The notes under the pieces are model-generated. The model ran no database searches and was not told the DNA's origin. It saw only the letters and a program-made list of their open reading frames with translations. From contig NZ_JACHIO010000015.1 in NCBI RefSeq assembly GCF_014203225.1, positions 1-64,000 on the forward strand: a stretch of 64,000 nt of DNA, given 5' to 3'. Position numbers and translations under genes: made by a program. The stretch is from Granulicella mallensis. Lineage in GTDB: Bacteria > Acidobacteriota > Terriglobia > Terriglobales > Acidobacteriaceae. Positions 8,388 to 57,086 of the stretch are shown here, in pieces; within the stretch, counting starts at the first letter, position 1, and each line of letters begins with the position of its first letter.

Positions 8388-8403
8388 CGGGGCTTCAGCC
8401 CCG
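8388..8403 (+). repeat. TTCA-loop stem-loop in the rpsN-rpsH spacer
   Basis: CGGGGC, loop TTCA, GCCCCG. It is one of many stem-loops in this window built on GCTTCAGC or GCTTTAGC, found here in the 200-base spacer between rpsN and rpsH. Confidence 0.5.
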
Positions 8404-8523
8404 GCCCTCCCTGAGGGTGAGACAAATATCGGCGTGACACGCTGCAAAGCGAACCGCCACAACCATTCCCGCAGGTTCTCCTGGCTGATCAGTCCGGAGC
8501 GAACGGGGGATGAAAGGAAAACG

Positions 8524-8922
8524 ATGAACCTTACCGATCCAGTCGCAGACTTCCTCACGCGCATTCGCAACGCACACCGTGCTCGCCACCAGAAGCTCGA
8601 CGCTCCAGCCTCCAAGCTCAAGACTGAGATTGCCCGCATCCTCAAGGAAGAGGGCTACATCGCAAACTACAAGGCCGCCGAAGAAGAAGGCCAGAAGGTT
8701 CTGCGCGTGTACCTGAAGTACGGCCCGAACAACGAGCCGGTGATCCGCGACCTCAAGCGCATCTCGCGTCCCGGCTGCCGCGTGTACCTGGGCAGGGACG
8801 AGATTCGTCGCGTCCAGGGTGGCCTCGGCATCTCGATCATGACTACCCCCAAGGGTGTTATGACCGGACGTCAGGCCCGTCGCGAAGGTGTTGGCGGCGA
8901 AATCCTCGCAGAAGTCTGGTAG
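8524..8922 (+). CDS. rpsH: 30S ribosomal protein S8
   Basis: Encodes 132 residues from ATG 8524 (MNLTDPVADFLTRIRNA), which is the family start; the longer frame from 8380 begins in the spacer and shows no homology. AAAGGAAAACG precedes it. S8 binds the central domain of 16S rRNA and in E. coli represses the spc operon. The ending GGLGISIMTTPKGVMTGRQA is fully conserved. Confidence 0.96.
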   Translation: MNLTDPVADFLTRIRNAHRARHQKLDAPASKLKTEIARILKEEGYIANYKAAEEEGQKVLRVYLKYGPNNEPVIRDLKRISRPGCRVYLGRDEIRRVQGGLGISIMTTPKGVMTGRQARREGVGGEILAEVW

Positions 8923-9070
8923 TTCCCGGGGTAGCGGTGGGCTTTGGCTCACCGCTGCCCGTACAAGTTTGAAAGGGCTTTGGCCCAGGCCCAAGGCGAG
9001 CCATGATCGCCGGCTGCAGTGGAACGAAGCCTAAACTCTTCGCGACTCGCAAGCCATAAAGGATTTTGAA

Positions 9071-9610
9071 ATGTCACGTATCGGCAAGAAGCCCATCACG
9101 CTGCCTAAGGGCGTCAAGTACACAATGCAGAGCAACATCTGTGTTGTCGAGGGTCCCAAGGGCAAAGTTAACGCTTTGATTCCCGACGGCATCACGCTTT
9201 CCGAGAAGGACGGCATTCTTACTGTCGAGCGCCCTGACGATAAGCACGCTGCGGTCCACGGGCTGGCTCGCGCTCTCGTCTTCAACGCTGTTGAGGGTGT
9301 GACGAATGGCTGGAAGAAGGAGCTTGACGTTGTCGGTATCGGTTACCGCGTCGAGATGAAGGGCAAGGATATGGTCGTGTTCACACTCGGCTACTCCCAC
9401 CCCATCGAGTTCCCCTTGCCTACCGGTATCGAAGTTGCCATCGACCCCAAGCAGACCCATGTTACGGTCTCGGGCATCGATCGCCAGAAGGTCGGCCAGA
9501 TTGCCGCGGACATGCGTTCGCTGCGCAAGCCTGATCCTTACAAGAACAAGGGTGTTCGCTACTCCGACGAGAAGCTCAAGAAGAAGGTCGGAAAGACGGG
9601 CGCTAAGTAA
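9071..9610 (+). CDS. rplF: 50S ribosomal protein L6
   Basis: Encodes 179 residues, the family length. L6 lies near the GTPase-associated region and the sarcin-ricin loop. [15 protein letters not shown] and the C-terminal [15 protein letters not shown] block are characteristic. The ATG follows AAAGGATTTTGAA. The downstream spacer to rplR has an inverted GGTTCAG/CTGAACC repeat (about 9629-9661). Confidence 0.97.
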
Positions 9611-9732
9611 TAGGGCGTAGGGTCTAGGGTTCAGAAGGCGATGCTTTCTGGGCCCTGAACCCTGGCCCTGACCTCTCAGCAATTCACCGAACGTCGTCTT
9701 CATTGAGGCGACGCTACTAGGAAGGAAAGATC

Positions 9733-10098
9733 ATGATCAATCTCCGCAAACGCAATGACATTCGCCAGCGCGTGCACTTTCGCATCCGTGCGAAGATCTC
9801 CGGCACCGCCGAGCGTCCCCGTCTCAACGTGTATCGTTCGTTGAACCACATCTACACGCAGCTCATCGACGACGCGACCGGCACCACCATCGTCTCGGCT
9901 TCCACCATCAGCAAGAAGGGTGAGGGCAAGACCGCAGGCGGTAACGTTGAAGCCGCAAAGACTGTCGGCAAGCTGATCGCAGAGCGCGCTCAGGAGAAGG
10001 GCATCAAGAAGGTGGTCTTCGATCGTGGCGGTTACCTGTATCACGGTCGCATCAAGGCGCTGGCCGATGCTGCTCGCGAAGCCGGGCTGGAGTTCTAA
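9733..10098 (+). CDS. rplR: 50S ribosomal protein L18
   Basis: Encodes 121 residues. L18 carries 5S rRNA into the 50S central protuberance. The pattern [32 protein letters not shown] and the [21 protein letters not shown] ending is typical. GAAGGAAAG lies about 6 bases before the ATG. Confidence 0.97.
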
Positions 10099-10142
10099 GG
10101 TTTGCTGTCAGGCGCACCGCGCCAGAAGGATTAAGGAAAATA

Positions 10143-10649
10143 ATGGTTACGAAGAAGAGACTCGACGGCAACCGGATGAACCTCAAGGATGAGGTCGTCT
10201 CCATCAACCGCGTCACCAAGGTCGTCAAGGGCGGCAAGAACATGTCGTTTGCGGCGCTGGTCATCGTTGGCGACGCTGCTGAAGGCGTGGTCGGCTACGG
10301 CTCCGGCAAGGCCAAGGAAGTGCCCCAGGCTATCCGCAAGGGCATTGAAGCGGCGAAGAAGAACCTGATCAAGGTCAACCTGACGGAGTACACGATTCCG
10401 CACCAGGTGCTTGGCCACTTCGGTTCGGGTGAAGTTCTATTGAAGCCCGCTCCTGAAGGTACGGGCGTCATCGCCGGCAAGACGGTACGCGCCGTCATGA
10501 CCGCTGCCGGTGTGCAGAACGTGCTGACCAAGAGCCTTGGCTCGGCCAATCCGCACAACGTGATCAAGGCTACCTTCGACGCGCTCACCCAGCTTCGCGA
10601 TCGCGCTGAAGTTGCCGCTCTGCGTGGCAAGTCAGTCGACGAACTTTAA
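10143..10649 (+). CDS. rpsE: 30S ribosomal protein S5
   Basis: Encodes 168 residues. S5 belongs to the decoding-fidelity set (ram mutations) and the mRNA-entry site. The double-stranded-RNA-binding-like N-terminal domain ([19 protein letters not shown]) and the C-terminal [11 protein letters not shown] and [17 protein letters not shown] segments are conserved. AAGGATTAAGGAAA precedes ATG. The spacer after it holds a simple inverted repeat (ATAGAGAGTAGAG region versus CTACACTCTATCC). Confidence 0.97.
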
Positions 10650-10748
10650 GAAATGCAGAGGGTAGGGAATAGAGCATAGAGAGTAGAGAAAGATTTGGTC
10701 TACACTCTATCCTCTTCACTCCATCCTCTCCCTCAACGGAGAAGAACA

Positions 10749-10934
10749 ATGGCAGCCGAAAACAAGATTAAACTCCAGTACTTCCGCTCGCAGATCTGCA
10801 CGCCGGTCAAGCACAAGCTCGTCGTCAAGGGCCTGGGCTTCACGCGCCTGAATCAGATTGTCGAACGCGAAGATACACCGTCGATCCGCGGTATGGTGAA
10901 TAAGATTCCTCACCTCGTCCGTATCGTCGACTAG
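10749..10934 (+). CDS. rpmD: 50S ribosomal protein L30
   Basis: Encodes 61 residues from ATG 10749, preceded by ACGGAGAAGAA; the longer frame from 10695 runs through spacer repeat sequence. L30 is a small 50S protein absent from some lineages. KIKLQYFRSQICTPVKHK, GLGFTRLNQ and the ending GMVNKIPHLVRIVD match the family. Confidence 0.95.
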   Translation: MAAENKIKLQYFRSQICTPVKHKLVVKGLGFTRLNQIVEREDTPSIRGMVNKIPHLVRIVD

Positions 10935-10953
10935 TGAAATGTTCTCAGTGGTT

Positions 10954-10994
10954 GGTTCTCAGTTGTCAGTGAGAATGCAAAGAAGCTGAGAACC
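10954..10994 (+). repeat. Inverted repeat in the rpmD-rplO spacer
   Basis: GGTTCTCAG (10954-10962) and CTGAGAACC (10986-10994) are exact reverse complements. The flanking words AGTTGTCAGTGAG and GGAACGGAGAACTGACATC are near-copies of those in the 2481-2540 and 7387-7443 spacers. Confidence 0.65.
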
Positions 10995-11062
10995 GGGAAC
11001 GGAGAACTGACATCTCCGCAACAGATGCGAGTCGGCTACCAGCCGGCGTTAGCGAGGAAATC

Positions 11063-11527
11063 ATGGCACTTAATCTCAGCAATCTCAAAGCGCCCAAAAA
11101 GGCGAATGAAAACAAGAAGCGCGTTGGCCGCGGTATGGGTTCGGGTATGGGTAAGACCTCGACCCGCGGTCACAAGGGTCAGGGTTCGCGTTCGGGCTCC
11201 AGCCTGATGCGCGGTTTTGAAGGCGGCCAGATGCCGCTGCACCGCCGCCTGCCGAAGCGTGGCTTTACCAACATCTTCCGCGTCGAATACGCCGTCCTCG
11301 GCCTCGACCGCATCGCCGAGCTGAACGAGAGCGAACTCACCCTCGAGAAGCTCACCGAGCATGGGATTCTGAAGAAGCGCAACGGCCTGGTGAAGGTCCT
11401 CGCGAACGGCGAGCTGAAGTCGGCTGTCACGGTGCATGCGCACAAGTTCTCGAAGGCTGCCTTGAAGGCTATCGAGGCTGCCGGCGGTAAGGCTATCGTT
11501 GTTGGCGAACCTGTTTCCGCTGCCTAA
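11063..11527 (+). CDS. rplO: 50S ribosomal protein L15
   Basis: Encodes 154 residues. L15 is a late 50S assembly protein with a long glycine-rich extended N-terminus, seen here as KRVGRGMGSGMGKTSTRGHKGQ, followed by RGFEGGQMPLHRRLPKRGF. GCGAGGAAATC lies before ATG. It is the last ribosomal-protein gene before secY. A 9-bp GGCCGGGGC stem-loop follows the stop closely. Confidence 0.97.
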   Translation: MALNLSNLKAPKKANENKKRVGRGMGSGMGKTSTRGHKGQGSRSGSSLMRGFEGGQMPLHRRLPKRGFTNIFRVEYAVLGLDRIAELNESELTLEKLTEHGILKKRNGLVKVLANGELKSAVTVHAHKFSKAALKAIEAAGGKAIVVGEPVSAA

Positions 11528-11536
11528 TGGTTCATG

Positions 11537-11558
11537 GGCCGGGGCATGAGCCCCGGCC
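11537..11558 (+). repeat. GC-rich stem-loop between rplO and secY
   Basis: GGCCGGGGC, loop ATGA, GCCCCGGCC, followed by TTGTTATGTG. The 9-bp stem with a short T-rich run could partly attenuate transcription between the ribosomal genes and secY. It also resembles the dispersed four-base-loop stem-loops seen elsewhere. Confidence 0.45.
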
Positions 11559-11692
11559 TTGTTATGTGAACGCGAATTTCCGCGTAGAATGTTTCTCAAG
11601 AACCCCAGCAGAGATCGGTTCCGCTGAAACAGTGTGCGGTACTCTGCCTGAAGCTTCGAAATCCGAAATTCGGTTTAAGGCCTTCTTCCACG

Positions 11693-13102
11693 ATGCTCGA
11701 GAAATTCCTCAACATCTTCCGTATCCGCGACCTGCGCAATCGCATTGGCTTTACGCTCGGGATGCTCGCGATCTACCGCCTGGGTGGACATATTCCTACG
11801 CCCGGCATCAACGCCGACATGGTCGCGCAGTTCTTCAATCAGAACTCCGGCTCGGCTCTGGGACTGCTCGATCTGTTCAATGGCGGCAACCTGCGCAAGG
11901 CAACAATCTTCGCGCTGGGCATCATGCCTTACATTACGGCGTCGATCATCTTCCAGTTGCTTACGGTTATCTATGAGCCGTTGGCGAAGCTGCAGAAGGA
12001 AGGCGAGCTTGGCCGCCGCAAGATCACCCAGTGGACGCGCTACGTCACGGTGGTTCTGGCGGTTGTGCAGAGCTTCTTCATCGCTCTTACTTTGACCAGC
12101 ACGCAGGCCGGCCAGTCGATGGTCAACGTCAGCCGTGCTCAGTTCATTCCACTGTGCGTTATCACTCTGACCTGCGGCACCGCCTTTATCATGTGGCTGG
12201 GTGAGCAGATCACAGAGCGTGGCATTGGCAATGGTATGTCGCTGCTGATCTTCACGGGTATCGTCGTCGGCTTGCCACGCGGTGTGGAGGACCTCTACGA
12301 GAAGGCCCATACAGCTGTCTGGGGTGGTTTTACTCCCATTGCGGTTGGGATGATTATCGCGTTGATGATCGCTGTTGTGGCCTTCATTGTTTATGTAGAA
12401 CGCTCTGAGCGCCGTATTCCGATTCAGTCAGCCAAGCGTATGGTCGGTCGCCGCATGGCTGCACCGGATTCCAGCTTTCTGCCGCTCAAGGTGAACTCCG
12501 GTGGCGTGATGCCGGTCATCTTCGCCAGCTCAATTCTGTCATTCCCGCTCTTGTTGCAGGGTGTCAATGTCTTCGGCGTTCCTCTCCGCGATAGCAAATA
12601 CCTGGGGCCCGTCTTCCGGAACCTCGCGCCCTCTGAACCCTGGTATGAACTCATCTCGATTGCGGCGATCATCTTCTTCGCGTACTTCTACATCTCGATC
12701 ATCTTCCGTCCGGACGATATCGCGGACAATATGCGCAAGTACGGCAGCTTTATTCCCGGCATCCGTCCAGGCAAGCGCACCTCCGATTTCATCAACGATG
12801 TGCTGACGCGCATCACACTGGTTGGAGCGATCTATCTCAGTATTATTTGGATCATTCCGACGATGCTGGTCAGCGGTATCCACTTCAACCATCTGTGGCT
12901 CGTTGGCAAGTTCTTCGATACCCTTCCAACGTGGACTACCAATGGCCTTGGCCTTAACTTCTACTTCGGCGGCACATCGTTGCTGATCGTTGTGGGTGTT
13001 GCCATGGATACGGTGCAGCAGATCGAATCGCAACTGATCATGCGCCACTACGAAGGCTTTACGCCCAAGTCCGGGCGTATTCGTGGCCGCCGTAGCTGGT
13101 AG
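11693..13102 (+). CDS. secY: Preprotein translocase subunit SecY
   Basis: Encodes 469 residues, somewhat longer than the 443 of E. coli. SecY is the ten-helix channel of the Sec translocon. Signatures include the N-terminal RIRDLRNRIGFTLGMLAIYRLGGHIPTPG, the plug-region GGNLRKATIFALGIMPYITASI, QWTRYVTVV, the cytoplasmic loop with RRIPIQSAKRMVG, and PGIRPGKRT. Lies in the usual place after rplO. No strong Shine-Dalgarno sequence is visible before the ATG (only AAGG about 13 bases up), unlike the upstream ribosomal genes. Confidence 0.97.
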   Translation: MLEKFLNIFRIRDLRNRIGFTLGMLAIYRLGGHIPTPGINADMVAQFFNQNSGSALGLLDLFNGGNLRKATIFALGIMPYITASIIFQLLTVIYEPLAKLQKEGELGRRKITQWTRYVTVVLAVVQSFFIALTLTSTQAGQSMVNVSRAQFIPLCVITLTCGTAFIMWLGEQITERGIGNGMSLLIFTGIVVGLPRGVEDLYEKAHTAVWGGFTPIAVGMIIALMIAVVAFIVYVERSERRIPIQSAKRMVGRRMAAPDSSFLPLKVNSGGVMPVIFASSILSFPLLLQGVNVFGVPLRDSKYLGPVFRNLAPSEPWYELISIAAIIFFAYFYISIIFRPDDIADNMRKYGSFIPGIRPGKRTSDFINDVLTRITLVGAIYLSIIWIIPTMLVSGIHFNHLWLVGKFFDTLPTWTTNGLGLNFYFGGTSLLIVVGVAMDTVQQIESQLIMRHYEGFTPKSGRIRGRRSW

Positions 13103-13239
13103 TTTCAAACTCGTTTGACGCAGGAACCCACGTCTGCAGGTCTGGGCGTGGGTTCTTACGTTGTTCGTTCATCCTTTGTGATTCTTCAAGGTAGAACGAT
13201 GAACCTCTTCACCCTTGTTCTTCATCAAAGCTGAGTCCT

Positions 13240-23784: not shown

Positions 23785-24074
23785 GGATGGGACACCTGAT
23801 GCGGATTCTATCGGAGCCCTTGTTTGAGTGCGTGAGGGAGTTTTTTAGGCAGTTTGTTCGAATTCTAGTTAATCGCGTTTTCATTGGGGAAATGAGAGTT
23901 TTTGAAGGCTGCGAGTAGCAATAAAGACGAGAAATGCACAGCAGTCCACAGGAATCCACAGCGATCCGCCTTGCATGAGGCCTGGATCGTTGCTAATCTC
24001 AACAAGTCGCAGTTGTAACGCGATGGCAACAAAGAGGTAACGCAGTAGCAATAAAGAAAGTATCAACTTAGAGG

Positions 24075-24103
24075 TTGCGCAAAGTAGAAAGATGCGATAC
24101 ACT
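24075..24103 (+). promoter_or_regulatory. Candidate rRNA promoter P1
   Basis: TTGCGC (24075-24080), 17-base spacer, TACACT (24098-24103), with an A/T-rich block just upstream. Lies in the first copy of the 126-bp duplication. Confidence 0.5.
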
Positions 24104-24200
24104 GAATTGGTACTGAAGTAAGAGCTAAAGCCTTGCATCGAAGCCACTTAGAAGTATTGAGGGCAACAAGGTGGAAATAAAGAAAGTATGAACTTAGGGG

Positions 24201-24229
24201 TTGCGCAAAGCAAGAAGATGCGATACTCT
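24201..24229 (+). promoter_or_regulatory. Candidate rRNA promoter P2
   Basis: TTGCGC (24201-24206), 17-base spacer, TACTCT (24224-24229). Second copy of the duplicated promoter unit; its -10 box equals that of P3. Confidence 0.5.
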
Positions 24230-24545
24230 GGGTTGGTACGAGAATAAGAAGTAAAGCTTCGCGCCAGAGCCCATTTGAGGTGTTGACGGCAAGTCGGAGC
24301 GCAGTCCAAGCGTTTGATCGCGGTAGTAAGAGCTCAGTTGAGCCAGCCGACACAAACCCAAGCCACTGCAATTGATATATCCAGGAGCTTAGGCTCCGCG
24401 GCCCTTTGTTGGGTTGTGAAGATGTTTTTGAGAATTTGTGCTGTTTTTGGTTGACCTCCTCGCTATCTGGTCGCCCCGCTCTCCACGCCCTGACGGGTTC
24501 TGATGAGAAGAGCAAAAGGGTGAAAAGGAAAGTTGAGGGTAGAGG

Positions 24546-39016: not shown

Positions 39017-39042
39017 TGGTTGTTTGTTTTGCCGGTGTTCTG

Positions 39043-39413
39043 GTGTCATCAACTGCTATTCGAGATGAAGATTGAGCCGTGCAAATAGCTTCTTGTGGCA
39101 CGAATCGGAAGGGCCTGGCTTCAGCCAGGCCGTAGAGGTGGGGCGCACATCTCTTCCACTCTGCCGAAGGCTGGAGCGAAGGCGTAGCCGTAGCGAATGA
39201 ATTGCTTTCCTCGGTATCGTCAAGACTGTATGGGGTTCACCAAGGGCGCATCCGTGCCTGGGGTGGCTTGTTCGCCACTGCAAAAGAAGGCAATTCAGTC
39301 GTTGCGCCCTGCGGGCTTCACTCGGGCCTTCGGCAGAGAGGTATGGTCTTTGGCCTGCTATTCACGGCATGGCTGAAGCTATGCCCTTCCAATTCTTGCC
39401 TCAATCAACAAAT
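39043..39413 (+). repeat. 370-bp dispersed repeat, copy 1
   Basis: Direct copy, roughly three-quarters identical by eye, of 56715-57086. Shared landmarks: GTGTCATCAA at the start, ATTGAGCCGTGCAAAT, the stem-loop GGCCTGGC-TTCA-GCCAGGCC (39112-39131), CCACTCTGCCGAAGGCTGGAGC, GAAGGCAATTCAGTCGTTGC (39285), and CTGAAGCTATGCCCTTCC near the end. Spurious ORFs run through both copies. It occupies most of the 489-base gap after tdk. Confidence 0.85.
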
Positions 39414-43520: not shown

Positions 43521-43774
43521 CATTCGTTCGTTGAAGAACCAGCGTTACCCCACAGCGCGAAGCGCAAACCGTGACGCTTCAGCGTCGCGGGGCGGAGGGA
43601 GCCGTAGCCTTTAGGCTACGGAATAGGGGGCAGGCGAGAATCGGGCTTAAGCCCCGGGCCTTTTGTTCGCAGCCGAAAGAAGGCCCGGGCCTAAAGGCCA
43701 CATTTTTGCTAGGCCTGAATTCCGTAGCCTAACGGCTACGGCTCCCTCCGTCTTCCTGATGCTGAAGCATCAGG
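43521..43774 (+). repeat. 250-bp composite palindromic element, copy A
   Basis: Largely matches the reverse complement of 52093-52341. Contains stem-loops GACGC-TTCA-GCGTC (43573-43586), CCGTAGCC-TTTA-GGCTACGG (43602-43621), GGCC-TAAA-GGCC (about 43688-43699), CCGTAGCC-TAAC-GGCTACGG (43722-43741) and CCTGATGC-TGAA-GCATCAGG (43755-43774). Fills most of the 500-base gap trpD-sucC. Next to it at 43813-43826 is a single arm (CGGTCGAGATGACA) of the 18448-18595 element. Confidence 0.85.
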
Positions 43775-43981
43775 GAACGCGCTCCGCGCTGTACTGAACA
43801 GACCAGCCTCCGGTCGAGATGACAATGTTAGTGAGGCGTGAATAACGGTGTTTTTTACTCGCGATTGTTGCTTTTCGCGCGGCGGCTCCGATAATCGTCG
43901 CACTGGTTTGCTCCGCGTTTCCGGCACTCGCTACTATGATTGGGTCTGCCAAGCAGCGAATGGTTGCATTCTGGAGCGCAC

Positions 43982-46579: not shown

Positions 46580-46591
46580 GCGATTCGCATT

Positions 46592-48125: not shown

Positions 48126-49220
48126 ATGAAGCTGCTTTGCGCTGTTTTGCTGTGCACCACGTTTACTGCCATCGCCCATGCCTCCGTTACCCATAGCACT
48201 TTTGGAAAACTGCCGGATGGTGCCGCGGTCGAGATCTATACGTTGAAGAATCCATCGGTTGAGATGCGGGTGATGACCTATGGCGCGCGCGTTGTTTCGC
48301 TTGCTACCAAAGATCGTGATGGCAAGATGGGGAACGTCGTGCTCGGATACGACAAGATTGAGGGCTATCTCAAGGATGCGAGTAGCTACTTCGGCAGCGT
48401 GCCGGGACGGTATGCGAACCGCATCGCGCTGGGCAAGTTCACGCTCGAAGGCAAGCAGTACCAGATTCCGATCAACAACGCTCCGAACGCCCTGCACGGT
48501 GGCCCCGATGGCTTTGCGAGCCGCAACTGGACGGGGAAAGAGATTCCCGAAGGCGTGGAGTTCACGCTCGTCAGCCCGGACGGCGACCAGGGTTTTCCCG
48601 GCACGATGACCGCGCATGTGCGCTACACGCTGGCGGGGAACACGGTTCGCATCGTCTACAGCGCGACCACGGACAAGCCCACCGTCGTGAACCTGACCAA
48701 TCACTCGTACTTCAACCTTGCGGGCGCGGGGAATGGAACGATTCTCGATGAGAAGCTGACGATCGACGCCGACAAGTTCACGCCCATCGATGCGACGTCG
48801 ATACCCCTGGGCAATCTTGCGCCGGTTGCGGGAACGCCCTTCGACTTTACGAAGCCCGAGACGGTGGGCTCGCGCATCGACGCGGACAACGAGCAGTTGA
48901 AACATGGCAAGGGCTATGACCACAACTTCGTCCTGCGCGGCAAGGCCGGCGTGTTGCGGCCGGCGGCCAAAGTTTATGACGCGAAGAGCGGGCGTGTGTT
49001 GACGGTCGAGACGACGGAACCGGGAGTTCAGTTCTACAGCGGCAACTTCCTCGACGGCACGCTGATTGGGCCGGGCGGCGTGAAGTATGTGAAGCGCAGT
49101 GCGTTGTGTCTTGAGACGCAGCACTATCCCGATTCACCGAATCGTCCGGACTTTCCGAGTACGGAGTTGAAGCCGGGGCAGACGTATCACAGCGAGACAA
49201 CGTGGACGTTTTCGAATTAG
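48126..49220 (+). CDS. Secreted aldose 1-epimerase (galactose mutarotase)
   Basis: About 364 residues from ATG 48126, with an N-terminal signal peptide (MKLLCAVLLCTTFTAIAHAS). GalM-type beta-sandwich enzyme that interconverts alpha and beta sugar anomers. Conserved His124 (NALHGG), catalytic His193 (NLTNHSYFNLAG), Asp265 (GYDHNF) and catalytic Glu330 (LETQHYPDSPN). A secreted form suits use of extracellular sugars. Divergent from the SGNH esterase, 213 bases apart. An 8-bp repeat begins at the stop codon. Confidence 0.93.
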   Translation: MKLLCAVLLCTTFTAIAHASVTHSTFGKLPDGAAVEIYTLKNPSVEMRVMTYGARVVSLATKDRDGKMGNVVLGYDKIEGYLKDASSYFGSVPGRYANRIALGKFTLEGKQYQIPINNAPNALHGGPDGFASRNWTGKEIPEGVEFTLVSPDGDQGFPGTMTAHVRYTLAGNTVRIVYSATTDKPTVVNLTNHSYFNLAGAGNGTILDEKLTIDADKFTPIDATSIPLGNLAPVAGTPFDFTKPETVGSRIDADNEQLKHGKGYDHNFVLRGKAGVLRPAAKVYDAKSGRVLTVETTEPGVQFYSGNFLDGTLIGPGGVKYVKRSALCLETQHYPDSPNRPDFPSTELKPGQTYHSETTWTFSN

Positions 49221-49252
49221 CAAGTCAGCAAGTTAGCAAGTCAGTGAGTCAG
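49219..49252 (+). repeat. Degenerate 8-bp repeat AGCAAGTC, about four copies
   Basis: Copies start at 49219 and continue as AGCAAGTT, AGCAAGTC, AGTGAGTC. Overlaps the stop codon of the epimerase gene. The same unit is at 559-586 and, inverted, at 49701-49799. Confidence 0.75.
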
Positions 49253-49319
49253 TGAAGCGGAAGGCTAGCGAATTAGTAGGTTCGTGAATCATAAGTCCGG
49301 TGAATCATGTTTCGTTAAG

Positions 49320-49560
49320 GGCACGGGTTTACCCGTGCCGTAAAAGTCTGCCACGAATTGGGCTTTAGCCCCTGAGGTAATGACGCAGAGCGCGCCGCAA
49401 ACATTGGCATCGCGCTCTGCGTCAGAGGTAACGCGCTGTAGCGCGCAACGACTTTTGCGGCAACTTATGTCGGCCCGATTCACCAGTGGCTCCTGGATGA
49501 GCCGGGCTTACAGCCCTCAGCTTCATAGGGGTGCGGCATACCTGGGGCTTCACCCCAGGC
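49320..49560 (+). repeat. Cluster of stem-loops between epimerase and fumarylacetoacetase
   Basis: The 597-base spacer 49221-49817 has no credible gene. It holds GGCACGGG-TTTA-CCCGTGCC (49320-49339), a perfect 14-bp inverted repeat TGACGCAGAGCGCG (49381-49394) with its complement at 49411-49424, and CCTGGGG-CTTCA-CCCCAGG near 49541. All are of the four- or five-base-loop kind seen in elements A and B. Confidence 0.7.
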
Positions 49561-49610: not shown

Positions 49611-49690
49611 CGGATTCACGGACTTTCTGGCTCACTGATTTACTAACCCACGGATTCACGGACTTTCTGGCTCACTGATTTACCAACCCA
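49611..49690 (+). repeat. 40-bp tandem duplication
   Basis: Two copies of a 40-base unit starting CGGATTCACGGACTTTCTGG, at 49611 and 49651, with one mismatch (TACTAACCCA versus TACCAACCCA). Lies just before the 8-bp array. Confidence 0.9.
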
Positions 49691-49700
49691 CGATCTAATC

Positions 49701-49799
49701 TGACTTGCTGACTTGCTGACTTGCTGACTTGCTGACTTGCTGACTTGCTGACTTGCTGACTTGCTGACTTGCTGACTTGCTGACTTGCTGACTTGCTGA
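49701..49799 (+). repeat. 12-copy tandem repeat of TGACTTGC
   Basis: Twelve perfect copies of the 8-mer TGACTTGC from 49701 to 49796 plus three bases, ending 18 bases before the fumarylacetoacetase ATG. The unit is the reverse complement of GCAAGTCA. Perfect copies suggest recent expansion; copy number could vary between strains. It lies in the 5' untranslated region, so it would alter spacing and not reading frame. Confidence 0.95.
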
Positions 49800-49817
49800 A
49801 GAAACGATGGAGGTTCC

Positions 49818-51104
49818 ATGCTCAGTTGGGTTGACGGTGCAAACGAGCCGCATGGCTTTGGCTTGAATCATCTGCCGTACGGTGCCTTTCGCAAGGACGA
49901 TATAACTCGCCTCTGTGTACGGATCGGGGACTGGTTGCTCGACCTGGAGGCGTGCGTAAGACACGGGCTTTTTGAGGGACTTGCTCCCACTGTGCGTGCC
50001 GCCTGTAGCCAGTCCACTTTGAATGATTTGCTCGCAGAGGGGCCGGAGGCATGGCAGGCGTTGCGTGCCACGCTGACTACATGCTTGAGTGCCGATGGCT
50101 ATGCTCGGACGGCCGCGGAGTGGTTGCTGGTTCCGCTGAGTGAGGTTGAGTTGGTTCTCCCCATCGATCCGCGTGGCTACACCGATTTCTATGCAAGCCT
50201 GCATCATGCGCGGAGAGTCGGCGAACTCTTTCGCCCGGACAATCCCTTGCTGCCGAACTACAAGCATGTGCCGATTGCCTACAACGGCCGCGCCTCATCG
50301 GTGATAGCTAGTGGAACACCCGTGCGGCGACCCTGGGGGCAACGTCGTCCAACGAATCAGGAGGCACAGCCTGTGTTCGAGCCGAGTGCGGCACTCGATT
50401 ACGAACTTGAACTTGCGTTTGTCGTTGGGCAGGGCAATGCGCTGGGAGAGCCGATCTCGATAGCAAACGCGCACGAGCATCTCTTCGGAGTCACGCTGTT
50501 GAACGACTGGTCCGCGCGCGATGTGCAGGCGTGGGAGTATCAGCCGCTGGGGCCGTTCCTGGGCAAGAGTTTTGCGACCAGCGTTTCGCCGTGGATTACC
50601 CCGATGGCGGCATTAGAGCCCTTCCGCGTTGCTCCTGCGGCGCGTGAGCCGGGCGATCCGAAATCCTTGCCGTATCTTCTGGACGATGCCGATCAGCAGC
50701 ATGGCGCATTCGACATACAAATAGAGGTGCTGCTGAGCACGGAGGCGAGCCGCGCGGCTGGACTTGCTCCGATGCCGGTAAGTCGCGGAAACGCACGCGG
50801 GCTGTATTGGACCGCCGCGCAGATGATCGCACACCACACCAGCAACGGCTGCAATCTGCGTCCCGGCGATCTGTTGGCAACAGGCACGATCTCCGGACCG
50901 CAACGCGAGTCCGCAGGTTGTTTGCTTGAGCTTACCCGCAACGGTACGGAATCCATCGCTCTTCCAAATGGGGAACATCGTGCCTGGCTTCAGGATGGGG
51001 ACGAGATCACTCTCGCCGCGCGTTGCGAACGCGAGGGTATGCCGTATCTAGAACTCGGTTCGTGTATCGGCCAGATTCTTGCTGCCAATGCGTCCGTTGC
51101 GTGA
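49818..51104 (+). CDS. Fumarylacetoacetase
   Basis: Encodes 428 residues. Hydrolyses fumarylacetoacetate to fumarate + acetoacetate, last step of phenylalanine/tyrosine breakdown. Metal ligands map with a constant offset of three to the mouse enzyme: Asp123, Glu196, Glu198, Asp230; also His130 and Lys250. An SH3-like N-terminal domain (about 1-110) and catalytic C-terminal part match full-length fahA. GGAGG lies 5 bases before ATG. Directly preceded by the 8-bp array. Followed by an aldo/keto reductase after 20 bases. Confidence 0.94.
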   Translation: MLSWVDGANEPHGFGLNHLPYGAFRKDDITRLCVRIGDWLLDLEACVRHGLFEGLAPTVRAACSQSTLNDLLAEGPEAWQALRATLTTCLSADGYARTAAEWLLVPLSEVELVLPIDPRGYTDFYASLHHARRVGELFRPDNPLLPNYKHVPIAYNGRASSVIASGTPVRRPWGQRRPTNQEAQPVFEPSAALDYELELAFVVGQGNALGEPISIANAHEHLFGVTLLNDWSARDVQAWEYQPLGPFLGKSFATSVSPWITPMAALEPFRVAPAAREPGDPKSLPYLLDDADQQHGAFDIQIEVLLSTEASRAAGLAPMPVSRGNARGLYWTAAQMIAHHTSNGCNLRPGDLLATGTISGPQRESAGCLLELTRNGTESIALPNGEHRAWLQDGDEITLAARCEREGMPYLELGSCIGQILAANASVA

Positions 51105-52090: not shown

Positions 52091-52092
52091 CT

Positions 52093-52341
52093 CCTGATGC
52101 TTCAGCATCAGGGTGACGGAGGAGCAGGGGCCTTTAGGCCCCTGAATTCAAGGCCAAGAAGAATTTGGCCTTTAGGCCTGGGCCTTCTTTCGGCTGCGAA
52201 CAAAAAGCCCGGGGCTAAAGCCCAATTCTCTCCTGCCCTTGATTCCGTAGCCTAAAGGCTACGGCTCCCTCGGTCTCGCGACGCTGAAGCGTCACAATTT
52301 ACGCTTCGCGCTATGGGGCGCATTGATTCTTCAACGAGCGA
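52093..52341 (-). repeat. 250-bp composite palindromic element, copy B
   Basis: Opposite orientation to 43521-43774. The CCTGATGC-TTCA-GCATCAGG stem-loop begins three bases after the aldo/keto reductase stop (52093-52112); others include GGCCTTTAGGCC and CCGTAGCC-TAAA-GGCTACGG (about 52244-52263). It fills the 354-base gap to the dioxygenase gene. Confidence 0.85.
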
Positions 52342-52444
52342 AAGATTTAAGACGCTAGCCAGAGTTGTCTGGGCTGGCATATCCTCACCTGTTGCGCCGG
52401 ATGCATCTTATAGGAGCATGCCGGCGCACCACGGAGAGACCACC

Positions 52445-53578
52445 ATGAGCACTACCCTCGCCCCAGTCCCCGAAACCACACAGCAGCGCGAAGACTTTCT
52501 GCCCCTGCGCGGCACCGACCATGTCGAGTTCTTTGTCGGCAATGCGCGGCAGGCGGCATACTTTTATCGCGCGGCGTTTGGGATGAAGCTCGTTGCCTAT
52601 GCCGGACCTGAGACCGGACGCCGCGATCGCGCGTCGTACGTTGTGCAGCAGGGCAAGGTGCGCTTTGTACTGACTACGCCTCTGCGCCCCAATACCGAGA
52701 TTGCGGAGCACATTGCCAAGCATGGCGACGGCGTGCGCTCGATTGCGCTGTGGGTCGATGATGCCCGCAAGTCGTGGGAAGAGACGACTAAGCGTGGCGC
52801 GCGCAGCGTCGAGGAGCCGCAGGTGCTGGAAGACGAGCATGGCCGCGCAGTGGTGTCGAGCATCGCCGCCTATGGCGATACGCTGCATACCTTCGTCGAA
52901 CGTGGCGACTACACGGGGCCGTTTCTGCCCGGCTATCGTGCGGTGACGGACGACATCGTCGCGCGGCCCGTGGGGCTGCTGCACATCGATCATTGCGTCG
53001 GCAACGTCGGCTGGAACTCGATGAACGACTGGGTCAAGTTCTACGAAGACGTGATGGGCTTCGGGCTGTATCAGCACTTCGACGACAGCGATATCTCGAC
53101 CGAGTATTCGGCGCTGATGTCGAAGGTGATGGCCAACGGCAACGGCTACGTAAAGTTCCCGATCAACGAGCCTGCCGAGGGCAAGCGCAAGTCGCAGATC
53201 GAGGAGTATCTCGATTTCTATGGCGGCCCTGGAGTTCAACACATCGCTCTTGCGACCAACGACATCCTCGATACGGTCTCGCGGCTGAAGCAGCAGGGCG
53301 TGGAGTTTCTTACCGTTCCGCACTCGTACTATACGGAGCTGCAGGGGCGCGTCGGCAAGATTGATGAGCCAACCGATGATTTGGAGCGGCTGGGCATCCT
53401 GGTCGATCGTGACAACGAGGGTTACATGCTGCAGATCTTCACGCGTCCCGTCGAGGACCGTCCCACGGTGTTCTACGAGATCATTCAGCGCAAGGGAAGC
53501 CGCAGCTTCGGCAAGGGAAACTTCAAGGCGTTGTTTGAAGCGATCGAGCGCGAACAGGCCAGTCGCGGAAACCTGTAG
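52445..53578 (+). CDS. hppD: 4-Hydroxyphenylpyruvate dioxygenase
   Basis: Encodes 377 residues from ATG 52445 (GGAGAGAC upstream); the open frame from 52313 begins within the repeat element. Converts 4-hydroxyphenylpyruvate to homogentisate using Fe(II). Two VOC domains (about 20-165 and 170-355). The iron ligands His183, His266 and Glu345 are visible in IDHCVGNV, GVQHIALAT and FYEIIQRKG. Bounded by palindromic element B. Together with the upstream fumarylacetoacetase, a tyrosine-degradation set. Confidence 0.96.
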   Translation: MSTTLAPVPETTQQREDFLPLRGTDHVEFFVGNARQAAYFYRAAFGMKLVAYAGPETGRRDRASYVVQQGKVRFVLTTPLRPNTEIAEHIAKHGDGVRSIALWVDDARKSWEETTKRGARSVEEPQVLEDEHGRAVVSSIAAYGDTLHTFVERGDYTGPFLPGYRAVTDDIVARPVGLLHIDHCVGNVGWNSMNDWVKFYEDVMGFGLYQHFDDSDISTEYSALMSKVMANGNGYVKFPINEPAEGKRKSQIEEYLDFYGGPGVQHIALATNDILDTVSRLKQQGVEFLTVPHSYYTELQGRVGKIDEPTDDLERLGILVDRDNEGYMLQIFTRPVEDRPTVFYEIIQRKGSRSFGKGNFKALFEAIEREQASRGNL

Positions 53579-53637
53579 TGATACTCGGTGCCCACCCATG
53601 GAGATGATCGTCACGGGTGGAGCACTGTGGTGCGGCG

Positions 53638-53946
53638 CTATGGTTTTGTAGTGTTGCTGACTGGCTCAAGACTCTTGAGCTGTTGAGTGAAGTTACGAAT
53701 CGGCAGCACCAGGGGAGCGAACAACGGATCTTTCCTCTTTGCGAGAACGATCTCGCCCAGGAGCTTGAGCCCAATCGCCAGCGATGCCGATCTGTTTATG
53801 TCGAGGAGGCGTTTCGCCTGAACCGCCTTCACGATATCGAGCAGAGGATCGTGATTGTCGGCGCAGAACTGCAGACTCTCTTCCTCCTGACGATGGCTCT
53901 GAAGTGGGTCGAGATTTTCAATGGTGATCCGGTAACGATAAGACAT
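53638..53946 (-). CDS. DUF3861 domain protein
   Basis: Encodes 102 residues. RYRITIENLD at the start, ENHDPLLDIV and ASLAIGLKLLGEIVLAKRKDPLFAPL are the features of DUF3861, a small family of unknown function often found near oxidoreductases. Convergent with hppD, and 62 bases from the short-chain reductase. Confidence 0.75.
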   Translation of the reverse strand: MSYRYRITIENLDPLQSHRQEEESLQFCADNHDPLLDIVKAVQAKRLLDINRSASLAIGLKLLGEIVLAKRKDPLFAPLVLPIRNFTQQLKSLEPVSNTTKP

Positions 53947-54008
53947 CTCTCCTCCTGACGGCTGGTATGTGGGATCGTCCAGAGACCTGGGAACAGGCCA
54001 GCGTCTGC

Positions 54009-54920
54009 TTAGGACTTGTTCCCATGGACCTTGGTCGGCTTAAGAAGATCCTTAAGGCCAATGCTGTTCAGGAACTCCACGCGTATGCGATCGGCGACAG
54101 CGTTTACTACCTGCGCGCCGTCATCGGCTGGATCGATGTGTACGCGGAAAGGGCGCGTGCCGAAGGGCATGTCCACGACCTGCATGATGGCTTGTGCGAC
54201 CTCGATGACATCGGCGCCTTCAGGCGAAACGCTCTGCAGGCCGGCCATGATCTCCTTGTCGAGTCCAGCGGTCGGCCCCTTGTCGTATTCGGCCAAGCGT
54301 TCTTTGTCGTTCGGGTGTCCTGCGTGAGCGAAGTGATTGGTGCCGGAGGTGTAGGCTCCGGGAACGATGATGGAGGTCTCGATGTTCCAGCGAGCGAGCT
54401 CTCCCGCGTAGCTTACGGCCATGGCGTCCATACCGGCCTTGGCCGCAAAGTAAGGTGCGAGATACGGAGGCGTGCCGCCGCGAGTGCTCGTGCTCCCGAT
54501 CCAAAGTACGAGACCGGTGCCTTGCTTGCGAAGCACTGGCAGAGCAGCGCGATTGACGCGCTGTGTGCTCAGGACGTTGATGTCATAGAGCTGCGCGAGC
54601 TGCTCCGGCGTGAAGGATTCGGCTGGCCCGAAGACCATGTGGCCTGCGTTATGAATCACGACATCGAGCCGGCCCTGCTCCGCGACGATGGTTTGCAGGC
54701 TCTTGTCCACAGAGTCCTGGGACTGTACATCCATCTCGACGGCCCGCAGGTCCGCATGGTTTTCGGCTGCGAACGTACGGACCTCTTCGACCTGTGGGGC
54801 GTTCCGCCCTGTTGTCTCACGCATGCCGGCATACACTGTATGACCGGCCTTTGCCAGCTCGCGGGCGGTCAGTGCGCCAAACCCGCTGGATGCTCCTGTA
54901 ATTACGATTACGCTTTTCAT
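54009..54920 (-). CDS. Short-chain dehydrogenase/reductase (classical SDR)
   Basis: Encodes 303 residues. Cofactor motif TGASSGFG (8-15), NAG (91-93), and catalytic Tyr157-xxx-Lys161 with Ser near 143-145. The Arg in AGMRETTGRN suggests NADPH preference. About 50 residues longer at the C-terminus than a 250-residue SDR. Substrate unknown. Followed upstream by a second SDR gene 46 bases away in the same direction. Confidence 0.88.
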   Translation of the reverse strand: MKSVIVITGASSGFGALTARELAKAGHTVYAGMRETTGRNAPQVEEVRTFAAENHADLRAVEMDVQSQDSVDKSLQTIVAEQGRLDVVIHNAGHMVFGPAESFTPEQLAQLYDINVLSTQRVNRAALPVLRKQGTGLVLWIGSTSTRGGTPPYLAPYFAAKAGMDAMAVSYAGELARWNIETSIIVPGAYTSGTNHFAHAGHPNDKERLAEYDKGPTAGLDKEIMAGLQSVSPEGADVIEVAQAIMQVVDMPFGTRPFRVHIDPADDGAQVVNAVADRIRVEFLNSIGLKDLLKPTKVHGNKS

Positions 54921-54966
54921 AACCTCACTCCTCTAAGTTGCATTTGCGTTTGTGCGGCGAGCTCTA

Positions 54967-55698
54967 TCAGTACGCGAAGCCGCCGTTGACCTTGAGAATC
55001 TGCGAATTGACCCATCCGCCGTCCGGACCCGCGAGGAACGACACCACGTTGGCGATATCCTGCGGCTCGCCGAGGCGCTGCAGCGGAGAGAGGTTGCGCA
55101 GCCGTGCGATGTCCTCTTCGCTCTTGCCGTTGAGGAAGAGCTCCGTTCCTGTAGGTCCGGGGGCTACTCCATTCACCGTGATGTTGCGTCCGGCCAGCTC
55201 ATTCGCGAGAACGTGGACCAGGCCTTCGATACCCGCCTTCGCCGCAATATATGCGCCATAGGTAGGAAAGGACTTCAGCAGCACGCTGCTGGAGAAGGCA
55301 ATGATGCGGCCGCCCTCAGCAATGTGTTGTGCCGCCTGAGAGAAGACCAGGAAGGTGCCGCGCAGGTTGGTCTGGATCGTCTTATCGAAGACCTCGAGAT
55401 CTCCCTTTGCGATGGGCGAGAGTGCCATAATGCCTGCGTTATTCACGACGACATCAATCTGCCCGTACTCCTTCCTGGTCGCTGCGAACAGGTTTTGTAC
55501 CTCTTCGGGCTTCGAGATGTCGGCCTGTAGTGCGACTGCTGTGCCGCCCTCTGCGACGATCTCGCTGACGACTTCCTGTGCTTTGCTTTCGCTGCCTGCA
55601 TAGTTCACAACGACAAAAAAACCGTCCTTTGCAAGACGCTTGGCAATCACTCGACCAATTCCACGTGATGCCCCGGTTACGATTGCGATCTTTGCCAT
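54967..55698 (-). CDS. Short-chain dehydrogenase/reductase (FabG-like)
   Basis: Encodes 243 residues from ATG 55698 (AAAGGAG 7 bases upstream). TGASRGIG, NNAG, Ser near 137, and Tyr150-xxx-Lys154 are all present; the C-terminal VSFLAGPDGGWVNSQILKVNGG is typical. FabG-like but in isolation from fatty-acid genes, so an oxidoreductase of unknown substrate. Divergent from the LysR gene with a 93-base spacer, so probably regulated by it together with the next SDR. Confidence 0.9.
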   Translation of the reverse strand: MAKIAIVTGASRGIGRVIAKRLAKDGFFVVVNYAGSESKAQEVVSEIVAEGGTAVALQADISKPEEVQNLFAATRKEYGQIDVVVNNAGIMALSPIAKGDLEVFDKTIQTNLRGTFLVFSQAAQHIAEGGRIIAFSSSVLLKSFPTYGAYIAAKAGIEGLVHVLANELAGRNITVNGVAPGPTGTELFLNGKSEEDIARLRNLSPLQRLGEPQDIANVVSFLAGPDGGWVNSQILKVNGGFAY

Positions 55699-55791
55699 GA
55701 CTTTCTCCTTTGCGTCGCTTTCCGCAACGCTTATGAAACCATCTGACGCCGCTACCGGGTATAAGTCCAATGCATAGTGCTAATATCCTTT
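55699..55791. promoter_or_regulatory. Shared promoter region, SDR genes and LysR gene
   Basis: A 93-base gap between divergent genes. This is the usual place for a LysR-type operator (T-N11-A) that controls both; I could not pin down a convincing site. Confidence 0.4.
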
Positions 55792-56715
55792 ATGCGTCTG
55801 ACACAACTACGTCAAGCCGATCTCAACCTGTTGGTGGTATTTGCTGTCATGGCGGAAGAGCGCAATGTCTCAAGGGCGGCTTCGCGGCTGCTCCTGAGCC
55901 AACCTGCGGTAAGCCGTGCGCTGCAGCGCCTGCGAGAGCTGTTTCATGACGATCTTCTGGTCAGGACCACCACATCCTACGAACTGACGCCACAAGGGCA
56001 GCGGCTAATGCAGGAGCTTGAAGTCATGCTGCCTCGGCTGGATCGCCTGATCAGCGGAGGCGAGTTCGATCCGGCAAAAGAAGTCGCTCGCTTTCGCATC
56101 GCCGTCACTGATCAGGCCGCCACTGTTTTTTCTCCTCTCCTGTGCCGCGAGATTCTGCCTGTTGCGGGGAAGGTGGCCTTCGAACTGATGGGATGGCGGC
56201 CCGATCGATTTGAAGCCCTGGCCCGCGGCAGTCTCGACCTGGTTCTCGATGCCGAGGAAGTGAAGATTCCATCTCCATTACAGCGGATGGAGCTATATGA
56301 AGAGGAGTTTGTCTGCGTGGTGTCGGCCAGCCGCGGCCGCGGAGAGAAACTTACGCTGAAGCAATATCTGGAAGGGGAGCACATCGGCGTGAGCACGCTG
56401 GGAGACTCGCAAACCATTCCGGACGATAGGCTGGCGGCTCTCGGACACAAACGAAATGTAGTCATGCAGGTCCCTTATTTCTCCGCTGCGATTCATTCGG
56501 TTCCCCAGACGAAGCTGATCGCAACGGTCCCTCGCAGGTTTGCGCAGGCCTACGCCAGGGACCGCCGTATCAAACTCCTCGTTCCGCCTGAGCCGATGCA
56601 TTCCTTCAAGTATGTGATGGTCTGGCATCCCAGGGTGAACACGGATGCGGCGCATATCTGGCTAAGGAAGACGATCCAGATGCTTGGGCGTTCGCTGTCT
56701 GAACAGAACAGCTAG
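55792..56715 (+). CDS. LysR family transcriptional regulator
   Basis: Encodes 307 residues from ATG 55792. N-terminal winged helix-turn-helix (about 1-65: LLVVFAVMAEERNVSRAASRLLLSQPAVSRALQRLRE) and a co-inducer-binding domain from about 90 onward. The domain style is that of NodD/PcpR-like LTTRs. Divergent from the two SDR genes, likely its targets. Ligand unknown. Confidence 0.9.
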   Translation: MRLTQLRQADLNLLVVFAVMAEERNVSRAASRLLLSQPAVSRALQRLRELFHDDLLVRTTTSYELTPQGQRLMQELEVMLPRLDRLISGGEFDPAKEVARFRIAVTDQAATVFSPLLCREILPVAGKVAFELMGWRPDRFEALARGSLDLVLDAEEVKIPSPLQRMELYEEEFVCVVSASRGRGEKLTLKQYLEGEHIGVSTLGDSQTIPDDRLAALGHKRNVVMQVPYFSAAIHSVPQTKLIATVPRRFAQAYARDRRIKLLVPPEPMHSFKYVMVWHPRVNTDAAHIWLRKTIQMLGRSLSEQNS

Positions 56716-57086
56716 TGTCATCAAATTAGTATTTCGGTTGAAAATTGAGCCGTGCAAATCGCATCGTGAGGCAAGATCCGAAAGGGCCCGGCTTCAGCCG
56801 GGCCGCAGGAGTTGGGCGCAGTTTTATTCCACTCTGCCGAAGGCTGGAGCGCAGGCGTAGCCGGAGCGACTAAATTGCTCTTCTCGGTGCCGCCAAGACT
56901 GGGCAGGGCTCGCCAAGGATGTATTTGTGGTGAGGGTGGCGGTTTCACCACGACTAAAGAAGGCAATTCAGTCGTTGCGCCCTGCGGGCTTCACTCCGGC
57001 CTTCGGCAGAGTGGTACGGGCCTTTGGCGCGGCTTTTCGCGGCATAGCTGAAGCTATGCCCTTCCGCTCCATGCCTCAACAAACTG
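56715..57086 (+). repeat. 370-bp dispersed repeat, copy 2
   Basis: Direct copy of 39043-39413, about three-quarters identical by eye. Stem-loop GGCCCGGC-TTCA-GCCGGGCC is at 56785-56804 and shows compensated base changes relative to copy 1 (GGCCTGGC). GAAGGCAATTCAGTCGTTGC is at 56961. Fills most of the 400-base gap. Confidence 0.85.

What the first reader, a model, noticed from the sequence alone, without database searches (positions are those of the whole stretch)
8388..57058. Large family of stem-loops with TTCA or TTTA loops
Many spacers hold hairpins built as (stem)GC-TTCA-GC(stem) or (stem)GCC-TTTA-GGC(stem): 8388, 39112, 43573, 43602, 49320, 52093, 56785 and others. The stems differ in sequence but the loop is constant, and copies in the two 370-bp repeats have compensated stem changes. 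That points to selection on RNA or DNA structure. I know of no named family that matches.
Basis: partly seen in the sequence, partly recalled or inferred. Interest (0 to 1): 0.7.

Follow-up and report, generated by a model that had tools for sequence, protein, structure and literature searches.

The report
Loop-tagged mobile hairpins in Acidobacteria
Most of these hairpins look like the ends of small mobile DNA repeats that go with a REP-type transposase in soil Acidobacteria, and their oddity is that the four-base loop is fixed while the stems are free to change, which suggests the loop is part of what the enzyme recognises.

Summary
In detail: all seven named hairpins are at the stated coordinates, and TTCA/TTTA loops (TTYA; TGAA/TAAA on the other strand) far exceed simulated expectation in the window and in 400 kb of the same genome outside it. 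The genome (Granulicella group, Acidobacteriota) has five full-length genes and one partial gene of one RAYT (REP-associated tyrosine transposase) type, all with correctly oriented TTYA hairpins beside them; stems at three match copies in the window. Six other Y1 transposase hits have none. In 41 genomes the trait follows one clade (24 of 27 against 2 of 58); 76 of the 80 best related loci of other genomes show it. A typical RAYT end has an 8-bp outer and a 4-5-bp inner hairpin about 36-37 nt apart, preceded by NNAG rather than canonical GTAG. The 200-bp and 370-bp repeats look like transposase-less relatives. Stem covariation holds in a test that did not use the 3' arm. I call it a new, loop-defined variant of the known REP/RAYT (acidobacterial TIRtron) kind; a Marinomonas enzyme has a closely similar loop rule, shown by experiment. 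The 8388 hairpin is probably separate: part of a covarying rpsN-rpsH spacer RNA.

The parts
39044..39409 (.). 370-bp repeat A, transposase-less element with a TTCA hairpin near each end; right limit unsure (39385-39409)
   Evidence: 40 distinct places in genome (40 of 99 candidates scored); most of it missing at the orthologous place in G002 and G010; ends judged from copy alignment
39112..39131 (+). left hairpin GGCCTGGC-TTCA-GCCAGGCC with foot GGAAG
   Evidence: folds as ssDNA -10.1 kcal/mol
39366..39385 (-). right hairpin, loop TGAA on + strand, one mismatch
43551..43792 (.). 200-bp composite element, six hairpins, left half TTYA (one TTAA), right half TRAA (one TAAC); shared with G002
   Evidence: outer ACAGCGCGAAGCGC also flanks RAYT L036
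43569..43590 (+). outer hairpin GACGC-TTCA-GCGTC; same stem flanks RAYT L036
43602..43621 (+). middle hairpin CCGTAGCC-TTTA-GGCTACGG
   Evidence: 138 genome matches at up to 1 mismatch
43643..43654 (+). inner hairpin GGGC-TTAA-GCCC (altered loop)
43688..43699 (-). inner hairpin GGCC-TAAA-GGCC
43722..43741 (-). middle hairpin, loop TAAC (altered)
43755..43774 (-). outer hairpin CCTGATGC-TGAA-GCATCAGG
49320..49371 (+). single element end: outer GGCACGGG-TTTA-CCCGTGCC (49320-49339) and inner GGGC-TTTA-GCCC (49360-49371), loops 36 nt apart
   Evidence: same outer stem and same layout at RAYT L043
52092..52315 (.). 200-bp composite element with six hairpins (52093, 52125, 52167 TTYA; 52212, 52245, 52280 TRAA)
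   Evidence: 54 bp without it in G010, another repeat in G002
56716..57084 (.). 370-bp repeat B with hairpins 56785-56804 (TTCA) and 57041-57060 (TGAA)
   Evidence: a different repeat at this place in G002
8388..8403 (+). CGGGGC-TTCA-GCCCCG hairpin in the rpsN-rpsH spacer; probably NOT a mobile copy, part of a structured spacer RNA
   Evidence: orthologous in G000, G002, G010, G017, G012 with pair changes

Best explanation
Apart from 8388, the hairpins are recognition ends of mobile DNA of the REP/RAYT kind. A RAYT (Y1 HUH single-strand nuclease) of one acidobacterial clade recognises a single-stranded hairpin with a perfect stem of about 8 bp, a T-T-Y-A loop (T and A probably pair, leaving TY) and an NNAG foot, probably together with a short second hairpin about 36-37 nt inward, and cuts and joins one strand. 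Gene-bearing copies have such ends in inverted orientation around the RAYT gene; the 200-bp and 370-bp repeats and single hairpins are transposase-less copies that were moved in trans. Because the enzyme reads loop, foot and stem geometry more than stem sequence, stems may drift if both arms change together. Shown: hairpins, excess, loop constancy, orientation, RAYT clade association, copy number, presence/absence at orthologous places, covariation. Inferred: binding, cleavage, trans-mobilisation, which strand is the substrate.
For: In this genome 5 full-length RAYTs of the clade and a further partial one (L366) have correctly oriented TTYA/TRAA hairpins; the 6 other Y1 hits have none, two of these being fragments or broken. 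Stems beside L036, L042 and L043 recur in the window. NCBIfam NF047646 'REP-associated tyrosine transposase' over cut-off for 3 of 3 RAYTs tested; best solved relative E. coli TnpA_REP 4er8, E 3e-16; Y-motif YI..NP in 8 of 9 aligned rows. Tree of 85 Y1 proteins: TTYA in correct orientation in 24 of 27 of one clade (support 97/96) and 2 of 58 others, Fisher 1e-15. 76 of the 80 best related loci (80 kept of 371 found). Orientation in the clade: 63 as expected, 7 reversed. Tetraloop hairpins with 5-bp stems in clade flanks: TTTA or TTCA 37 of 52 upstream; other Y1 loci TTCA 2 of 36. Repeat excess per Mb higher in 14 genomes with a clade RAYT than in 27 without, p 5e-5. 54 of 56 hairpins lie between predicted genes. 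Orthologous places lack the repeats in G002 and/or G010 for three of four elements compared. Experimental precedent: Marinomonas TnpA_Mb requires T, T, any, A in the loop; stem positions 2 and 3 could be changed without effect, position 4 could not, and stem mismatches seriously lowered cleavage (PMC8266576 section 22).
Against: No biochemistry here. Presence/absence could be deletion: at the 39-kb place G002 keeps sequence like that just right of the element. Three clade members (L115, L123, L086) do not show a correctly oriented perfect 5-bp hairpin: L115 degenerate, L123 with loop CTTTG, L086 near a contig end with a 4-bp one. Genomes G006, G012, G013, G015, G027, G033, G035 and G039 have clear TTYA excess (32 or more matches) without a RAYT placed in the clade; RAYT fragments with correctly oriented TTYA hairpins exist in G013 and G039, but a partial match in G006 has none nearby, and G012 has no match. 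Among the 80 loci, 15 also have a reversed hairpin upstream and 13 downstream. L038 has HVY instead of HUH. Ends of one element seldom match in stem: 1 of 20, as expected by chance. The outermost TIR of the 370-bp repeat was not found at L042. 81 of 210 RAYT ends lack a recognisable outer+inner pair.
Confidence: 0.88

Rival explanations
1. The hairpins are kept because they work as RNA (mRNA 3'-end protection or transcription termination); RAYT association is secondary.
For: Enriched between convergent genes (25 of 54, against 16% of intergenic sequence) and rare between divergent ones (4 of 54); hairpins cluster in elements, so the p-values overstate this. REPs are said to stabilise mRNA and stop transcription (PMC6006769, passage).
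Against: No T-run follows the window's hairpins (by eye; the terminator scan was not run); loop constancy and orientation follow the RAYT clade; orthologous places are often empty.
Confidence: 0.07
2. Perfect, 'covarying' stems arise without selection, by template-switch (quasi-palindrome) correction and by copying of whole ends, so covariation says nothing about function.
For: Stem variants come as a few shared types (15 arm combinations in 49 ends), as copying would give; the mechanism is recalled, not tested.
Against: Does not explain the constant loop, the NNAG foot, the RAYT neighbourhood, nor 40 distinct outer stems in 69 hand-chosen loci that co-diverge with the RAYT protein (Mantel r 0.46, 0 of 2000 permutations).
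Confidence: 0.05
3. They are ordinary GTAG (or CGTC) REPs.
For: Intergenic, inverted pairs, RAYT-linked; TY loops occur in GTAG families (PMC3733652, passages).
Against: GTAG is the foot in 1 of 129 RAYT ends and CGTC in none.
Confidence: 0.02

Closest known systems
Acidobacterial TIRtrons/TIRYTs (Di Nocera et al. 2013, PMC3733652; section 16 read whole, else passages; figures not held)
   Same: RAYT-like gene in Acidobacteria (T. saanensis, K. versatilis, A. capsulatum, G. mallensis) between inverted repeats; some TIRs in that paper are 'double palindromic', some are repeated in the genome.
   Different: The text I read treats most TIRs as unrelated to REPs and says nothing of a constant TTYA loop, NNAG foot, hairpin spacing or compensated stems; only one of three K. 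versatilis TIRs was a repeat family. Its TIR sequences are in a figure I could not see.
REPtron Mb of Marinomonas (PMC8266576; section 22 read, else passages)
   Same: Perfect short stem and TTTA loop; T, T and A essential, third base free, mismatch harmful, stem sequence of moderate or no effect by position.
   Different: GTAG two bases from the stem, 5-bp stem; group 3 RAYT; no second hairpin mentioned in what I read.
E. coli REP/BIME and TnpA_REP (PDB 4er8)
   Same: Intergenic palindromes in inverted pairs; HUH/Y1 nuclease, closest solved relative.
   Different: GTAG foot and bulged stem (PMC8266576, passages); here NNAG, perfect stem, fixed loop.
TnpA_Y1 class 3 elements of Acidobacteria and others (Quentin et al. 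2018, PMC6006769, passages)
   Same: Acidobacteria among hosts; atypical hairpins, in high copy in Solibacter, around the gene.
   Different: Y----Q motif and CnGA foot there; YI..NP and NNAG here.

Membership tests
REP/RAYT (REPtron) | High-copy, short, extragenic palindromes | tested here: met
   353 against 11 control genome-wide; 54 of 56 intergenic in the sample
REP/RAYT (REPtron) | Linked to a Y1 HUH transposase of the RAYT class (HUH, Y...NP) | tested here: met
REP/RAYT (REPtron) | Inverted pairs (BIME/REPIN-like) | tested here: met
REP/RAYT (REPtron) | 5' GTAG or GTGG tetranucleotide at the foot (canonical REP) | tested here: not met
   GTAG 1 and GTGG 2 of 129 ends; consensus NNAG. 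So not a canonical GTAG REP.
REP/RAYT (REPtron) | RAYT cuts the ssDNA hairpin | not testable with these tools
   needs biochemistry
CGTC REP | CGTC terminal tag, no transposase | tested here: not met
   no CGTC foot in 129 ends, which are RAYT ends
TIRtron/TIRYT, acidobacterial group | RAYT-like gene in Acidobacteria between inverted repeats | tested here: met
   the named type proteins of the paper were not fetched, so protein-level identity of the groups is untested
TIRtron/TIRYT, acidobacterial group | GGGGWSAS motif in TIR | not tested
   motif not searched for
TnpA_Y1 class 3 | Y----Q motif, CnGA foot | tested here: not met
   YI..NP in 8 of 9 rows; no CnGA among the 129 feet listed
IS200/IS605 insertion sequence | IS200 transposase over NCBIfam cut-off | tested here: not met
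   NF033573 at 31.4, 29.7 and 22.1 bits against cut-off 55
Rfam RNA family | Match at gathering score | tested here: not met
   only rRNA and tRNA in window; none in 15 loci

The most novel reading that the evidence does not exclude
A further REP superfamily, defined by its loop (TTYA) instead of a GTAG or CGTC foot, shared by a clade of acidobacterial RAYTs: the loop is a universal key, the stem is free to drift and co-diverges with its own RAYT (40 stems in 69 loci), so one genome can carry several parallel families, and each end is a two-hairpin unit at a nearly fixed 36-37 nt spacing.
Probability: 0.5. Interest if true: 0.6.

Novelty: new variant of a known kind. Interest (0 to 1): 0.5.

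Why it matters
REPs have been sorted by foot tag (GTAG or CGTC; PMC3733652), and the acidobacterial elements were set apart as TIRs. A loop-defined class linked to one transposase clade gives dozens of natural stem variants for asking what a RAYT reads in its substrate, how REP families split, and how RAYTs persist. It would also let these palindromes be annotated in acidobacterial genomes.

Tried and rejected
Rfam: no family at gathering score for these hairpins in the window or in 15 loci; a weak search of the rpsN-rpsH spacer gave one chance-level hit (E 4.4), of the L226 spacer none. The gene at 55777-56715 beside repeat B was tested as a possible transposase: it is LysR-like. I looked for the outermost TIR of the 370-bp repeat at RAYT L042 and did not find it. 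Left and right stems of one element are not matched. GTAG, CGTC, class 3 and IS200 memberships rejected on foot or protein signature. No covariance model was built: selecting hairpins by pairing would have biased the count, so I used anchored ends. No structure prediction and no terminator scan was run. Paper searches that could have shown a printed description of the constant loop: (listings; passages or sections of five papers); none seen, but figures and supplements are not held.
Full report
Observation. In the window, 8-bp perfect stems around 4-nt loops give TTCA 3, TTTA 3, TGAA 2 and TAAA 1 against at most 0.1 simulated each. In 400 kb of the genome outside the window, 31 of 174 hairpins with 6-bp stems and 24 of 43 with 8-bp stems have one of these four loops, against 1.4 and 0 simulated. 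Whole-genome counts: GCGACGCTWMAGCGTC 61 against 0 in the reversed control, CCGTAGCCTTTAGGCTACGG with up to 1 mismatch 138 against 0, GGSCTTYAGSCC 353 against 11. In the 464-kb sample (window included, rRNA operon left out) 54 of 56 TTYA hairpins with 5-bp stems lie outside predicted genes, while 519 of 622 hairpins with other loops lie inside them; 25 are between convergent, 25 between co-directional and 4 between divergent genes (crude gene predictor, hairpins clustered).

Host. G010 of the genome set has a contig of the same length (696,692 bases) and the same RAYT as a Granulicella sp. S156 record; the window's genome (6.47 Mb, 52 contigs) is in the same genus group.

The RAYT test. The genome has 11 Y1_Tnp matches. 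Five full-length proteins (L036, L037, L038, L042, L043) belong to one clade, and all five have TTYA hairpins upstream; L036, L037 and L043 also have TRAA mirrored downstream; L042 has a TTCA and then, further out, a TGAA downstream, as in a neighbouring 370-bp repeat. A sixth, partial gene (L366, found with alignment A1, not in the tree) lies between mirrored pairs GGCGCGGC(TTTA)+GGGGC(TTTA) and GGGGC(TAAA)+GGCGCGGC(TAAA). The other six Y1 hits have none; L039 is a fragment and L040 broken and unplaced. Stems match the window: GACGC(TTTA)GCGTC at L036 and 43569/52280 (there with TTCA/TGAA loops), GGCACGGG(TTTA)CCCGTGCC at L043 and 49320, GGCATAGC(TTCA)GCTATGCC at L042 and 57041. Three of three RAYTs tested pass NCBIfam's 'REP-associated tyrosine transposase' cut-off; E. 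coli TnpA_REP 4er8 is the closest solved chain.

Clade test. A tree of 85 Y1 proteins from 41 searched genomes (four short or broken ones dropped) has a clade of 27 with support 97/96. A correctly oriented perfect TTYA/TRAA hairpin of at least 5 bp is in the flanks of 24 of 27, and of 2 of 58 others (L109, L112; Fisher 1e-15); within the clade 63 hairpins are in the expected orientation and 7 reversed. L115 and L123 have degenerate or altered hairpins. In flanks of the clade, TTTA or TTCA make 37 of 52 upstream tetraloop hairpins and TAAA or TGAA 24 of 42 downstream; in the 62 other loci TTCA makes 2 of 36 upstream. Among the best 80 (of 371) loci found with a RAYT alignment, 76 have the hairpin in the expected orientation, and 15 and 13 also have a reversed one upstream or downstream; 77 titles are acidobacterial, three belong to one MAG labelled Rhodanobacteraceae. 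Repeat excess per Mb is higher in 14 genomes with a clade RAYT than in 27 without (p 5e-5; within the genus 14 against 11, p 0.002). Against: G006, G012, G013, G015, G027, G033, G035 and G039 have clear excess without a RAYT placed in the clade. Of these, L112 of G027, in a neighbouring clade, does have the hairpins; RAYT fragments in G013 and G039 have correctly oriented TTYA hairpins beside them; a partial match in G006 has none, and G012 has no match.

Anatomy. Of 210 RAYT ends, 129 show an outer plus an inner TTYA hairpin 30-44 nt apart; the spacing peaks at 36-37 nt (82 of 129), the outer stem is 8 bp in 103, the inner 4-5 bp in 115; of 128 feet read, A is second-last in 87 and G last in 102; GTAG occurs once. 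The 200-bp repeats (40 distinct places, 40 of 138 candidates scored) share the outermost ACAGCGCGAAGCGC with RAYT L036 (14 of 14 and 13 of 14 bases). The 370-bp repeats (40 distinct places, 40 of 99 candidates scored) have L042-type hairpins and CTGCCGAAGGC motifs like those beside L042, L115 and L123 (by eye).

Covariation. Thirty copies of the 370-bp repeat were taken by interior similarity. A search blind to loop sequence gave TTCA in 19 of 30 left and TGAA in 25 of 30 right ends. Anchored by 5' tag and TTYA loop, without the 3' arm, 49 of 60 ends remain: the loop is TTCA in 49; 382 of 392 stem cells pair (shuffled mean 313, maximum 337), with pair-type changes at pairs 1, 3, 4 and 5. Left and right stems of one element agree in 1 of 20, as by chance. 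Among 69 RAYT loci (from 74 chosen by hand) there are 40 distinct outer stems; stem distance follows protein distance (Mantel r 0.46, 0 of 2000).

Mobility. Against G002 (about 94% identical), 371 bp at 39020-39392 face 49 bp; the 52-kb element faces 54 bp in G010 and a different repeat in G002; repeat B faces a different repeat in G002; the 43.5-kb element is shared with G002. The direction of change is not proven, and at 39 kb G002 keeps sequence like that just right of the element.

Mechanism. In Marinomonas REPtron Mb, the loop bases T, T and A are required and the third is free; swapping the whole stem moderately affected cleavage, stem positions 2 and 3 had no effect, position 4 did, and mismatches seriously lowered it (PMC8266576 section 22). 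TTYA loops with variable but perfect stems are what such an enzyme would select. I infer that the clade RAYT reads loop, AG foot and stem geometry on single-stranded DNA; not shown here.

Known. Di Nocera et al. 2013 (section 16 and passages) named RAYT-like genes between inverted repeats TIRtrons and noted an acidobacterial group; a term search of the main text found no TTTA or TTCA, and its figure sequences are not held. Quentin et al. 2018 (section 13 and passages) found no REP-like sequences near subclass 2.1, into which they place 20 of 26 TIRYTs. RepRanger 2025 (passages) names Granulicella aggregans once, in a table of counts. Searches showed me no description of a TTYA-loop class.

The exception. 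The 8388 hairpin is at the orthologous place in 5 of 26 genomes with pair changes GGGGC/GCCCC, GGGAC/GTCCC, GAGGC/GCCTC and two wobble forms (by eye). The whole spacer of these 5 folds with 9 of 38 predicted pairs changed on both sides in some sequence; no Rfam match. I take it as a separate structured RNA; an old REP put to new use is not excluded.

Noticed in passing
window 8324-8462: rpsN-rpsH spacer: multi-hairpin structure in 5 genomes with 9 of 38 predicted pairs changed on both sides in some sequence, no Rfam match; includes the 8388 hairpin.
   Followed up: partly
window 8463-8530: Directly upstream of rpsH: conserved CCATTCCCGCAGGTTCTCC..GGAGCGAACGGGGGATGAAAGG, structure with 5 of 9 predicted pairs changed on both sides in some of 22 sequences; candidate S8 leader, no Rfam match.
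   Followed up: partly
L211, L213, L226, L227 (rpsN-rpsH spacer of other genomes): A different conserved stretch..CTAGCCAAGCCCGGCAACG.., sits in the same spacer; no Rfam match for L226 even at a lax threshold.
   Followed up: partly
window 62933-63170: About 240-bp palindromic repeat (GTCATCCTGAGCG..GCTCAGGATGACG) with two matches in the syntenic G002 stretch.
   Followed up: no
G002 (L253) at the places matching window 52.1 kb and 56.7 kb; also L004 near 1250: Another palindromic repeat type (GTCATTCCGAGCG.. / GTCATTCCCGCAGGGAATCTGC..) at the same places where the window has TTYA elements.
   Followed up: no
window 547-592, 49207-49260, 49684-49819: 8-bp tandem arrays (GCAAGTCA / CTGACTTG), the last just upstream of the ORF at 49818.
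   Followed up: no
L038 (G000:C19:38334-38726): RAYT with HVY instead of the HUH motif; possibly a dead copy.
   Followed up: no
window 24036-24287: Two tandem 126-bp copies 75% alike, upstream of the 16S rRNA gene.
   Followed up: no
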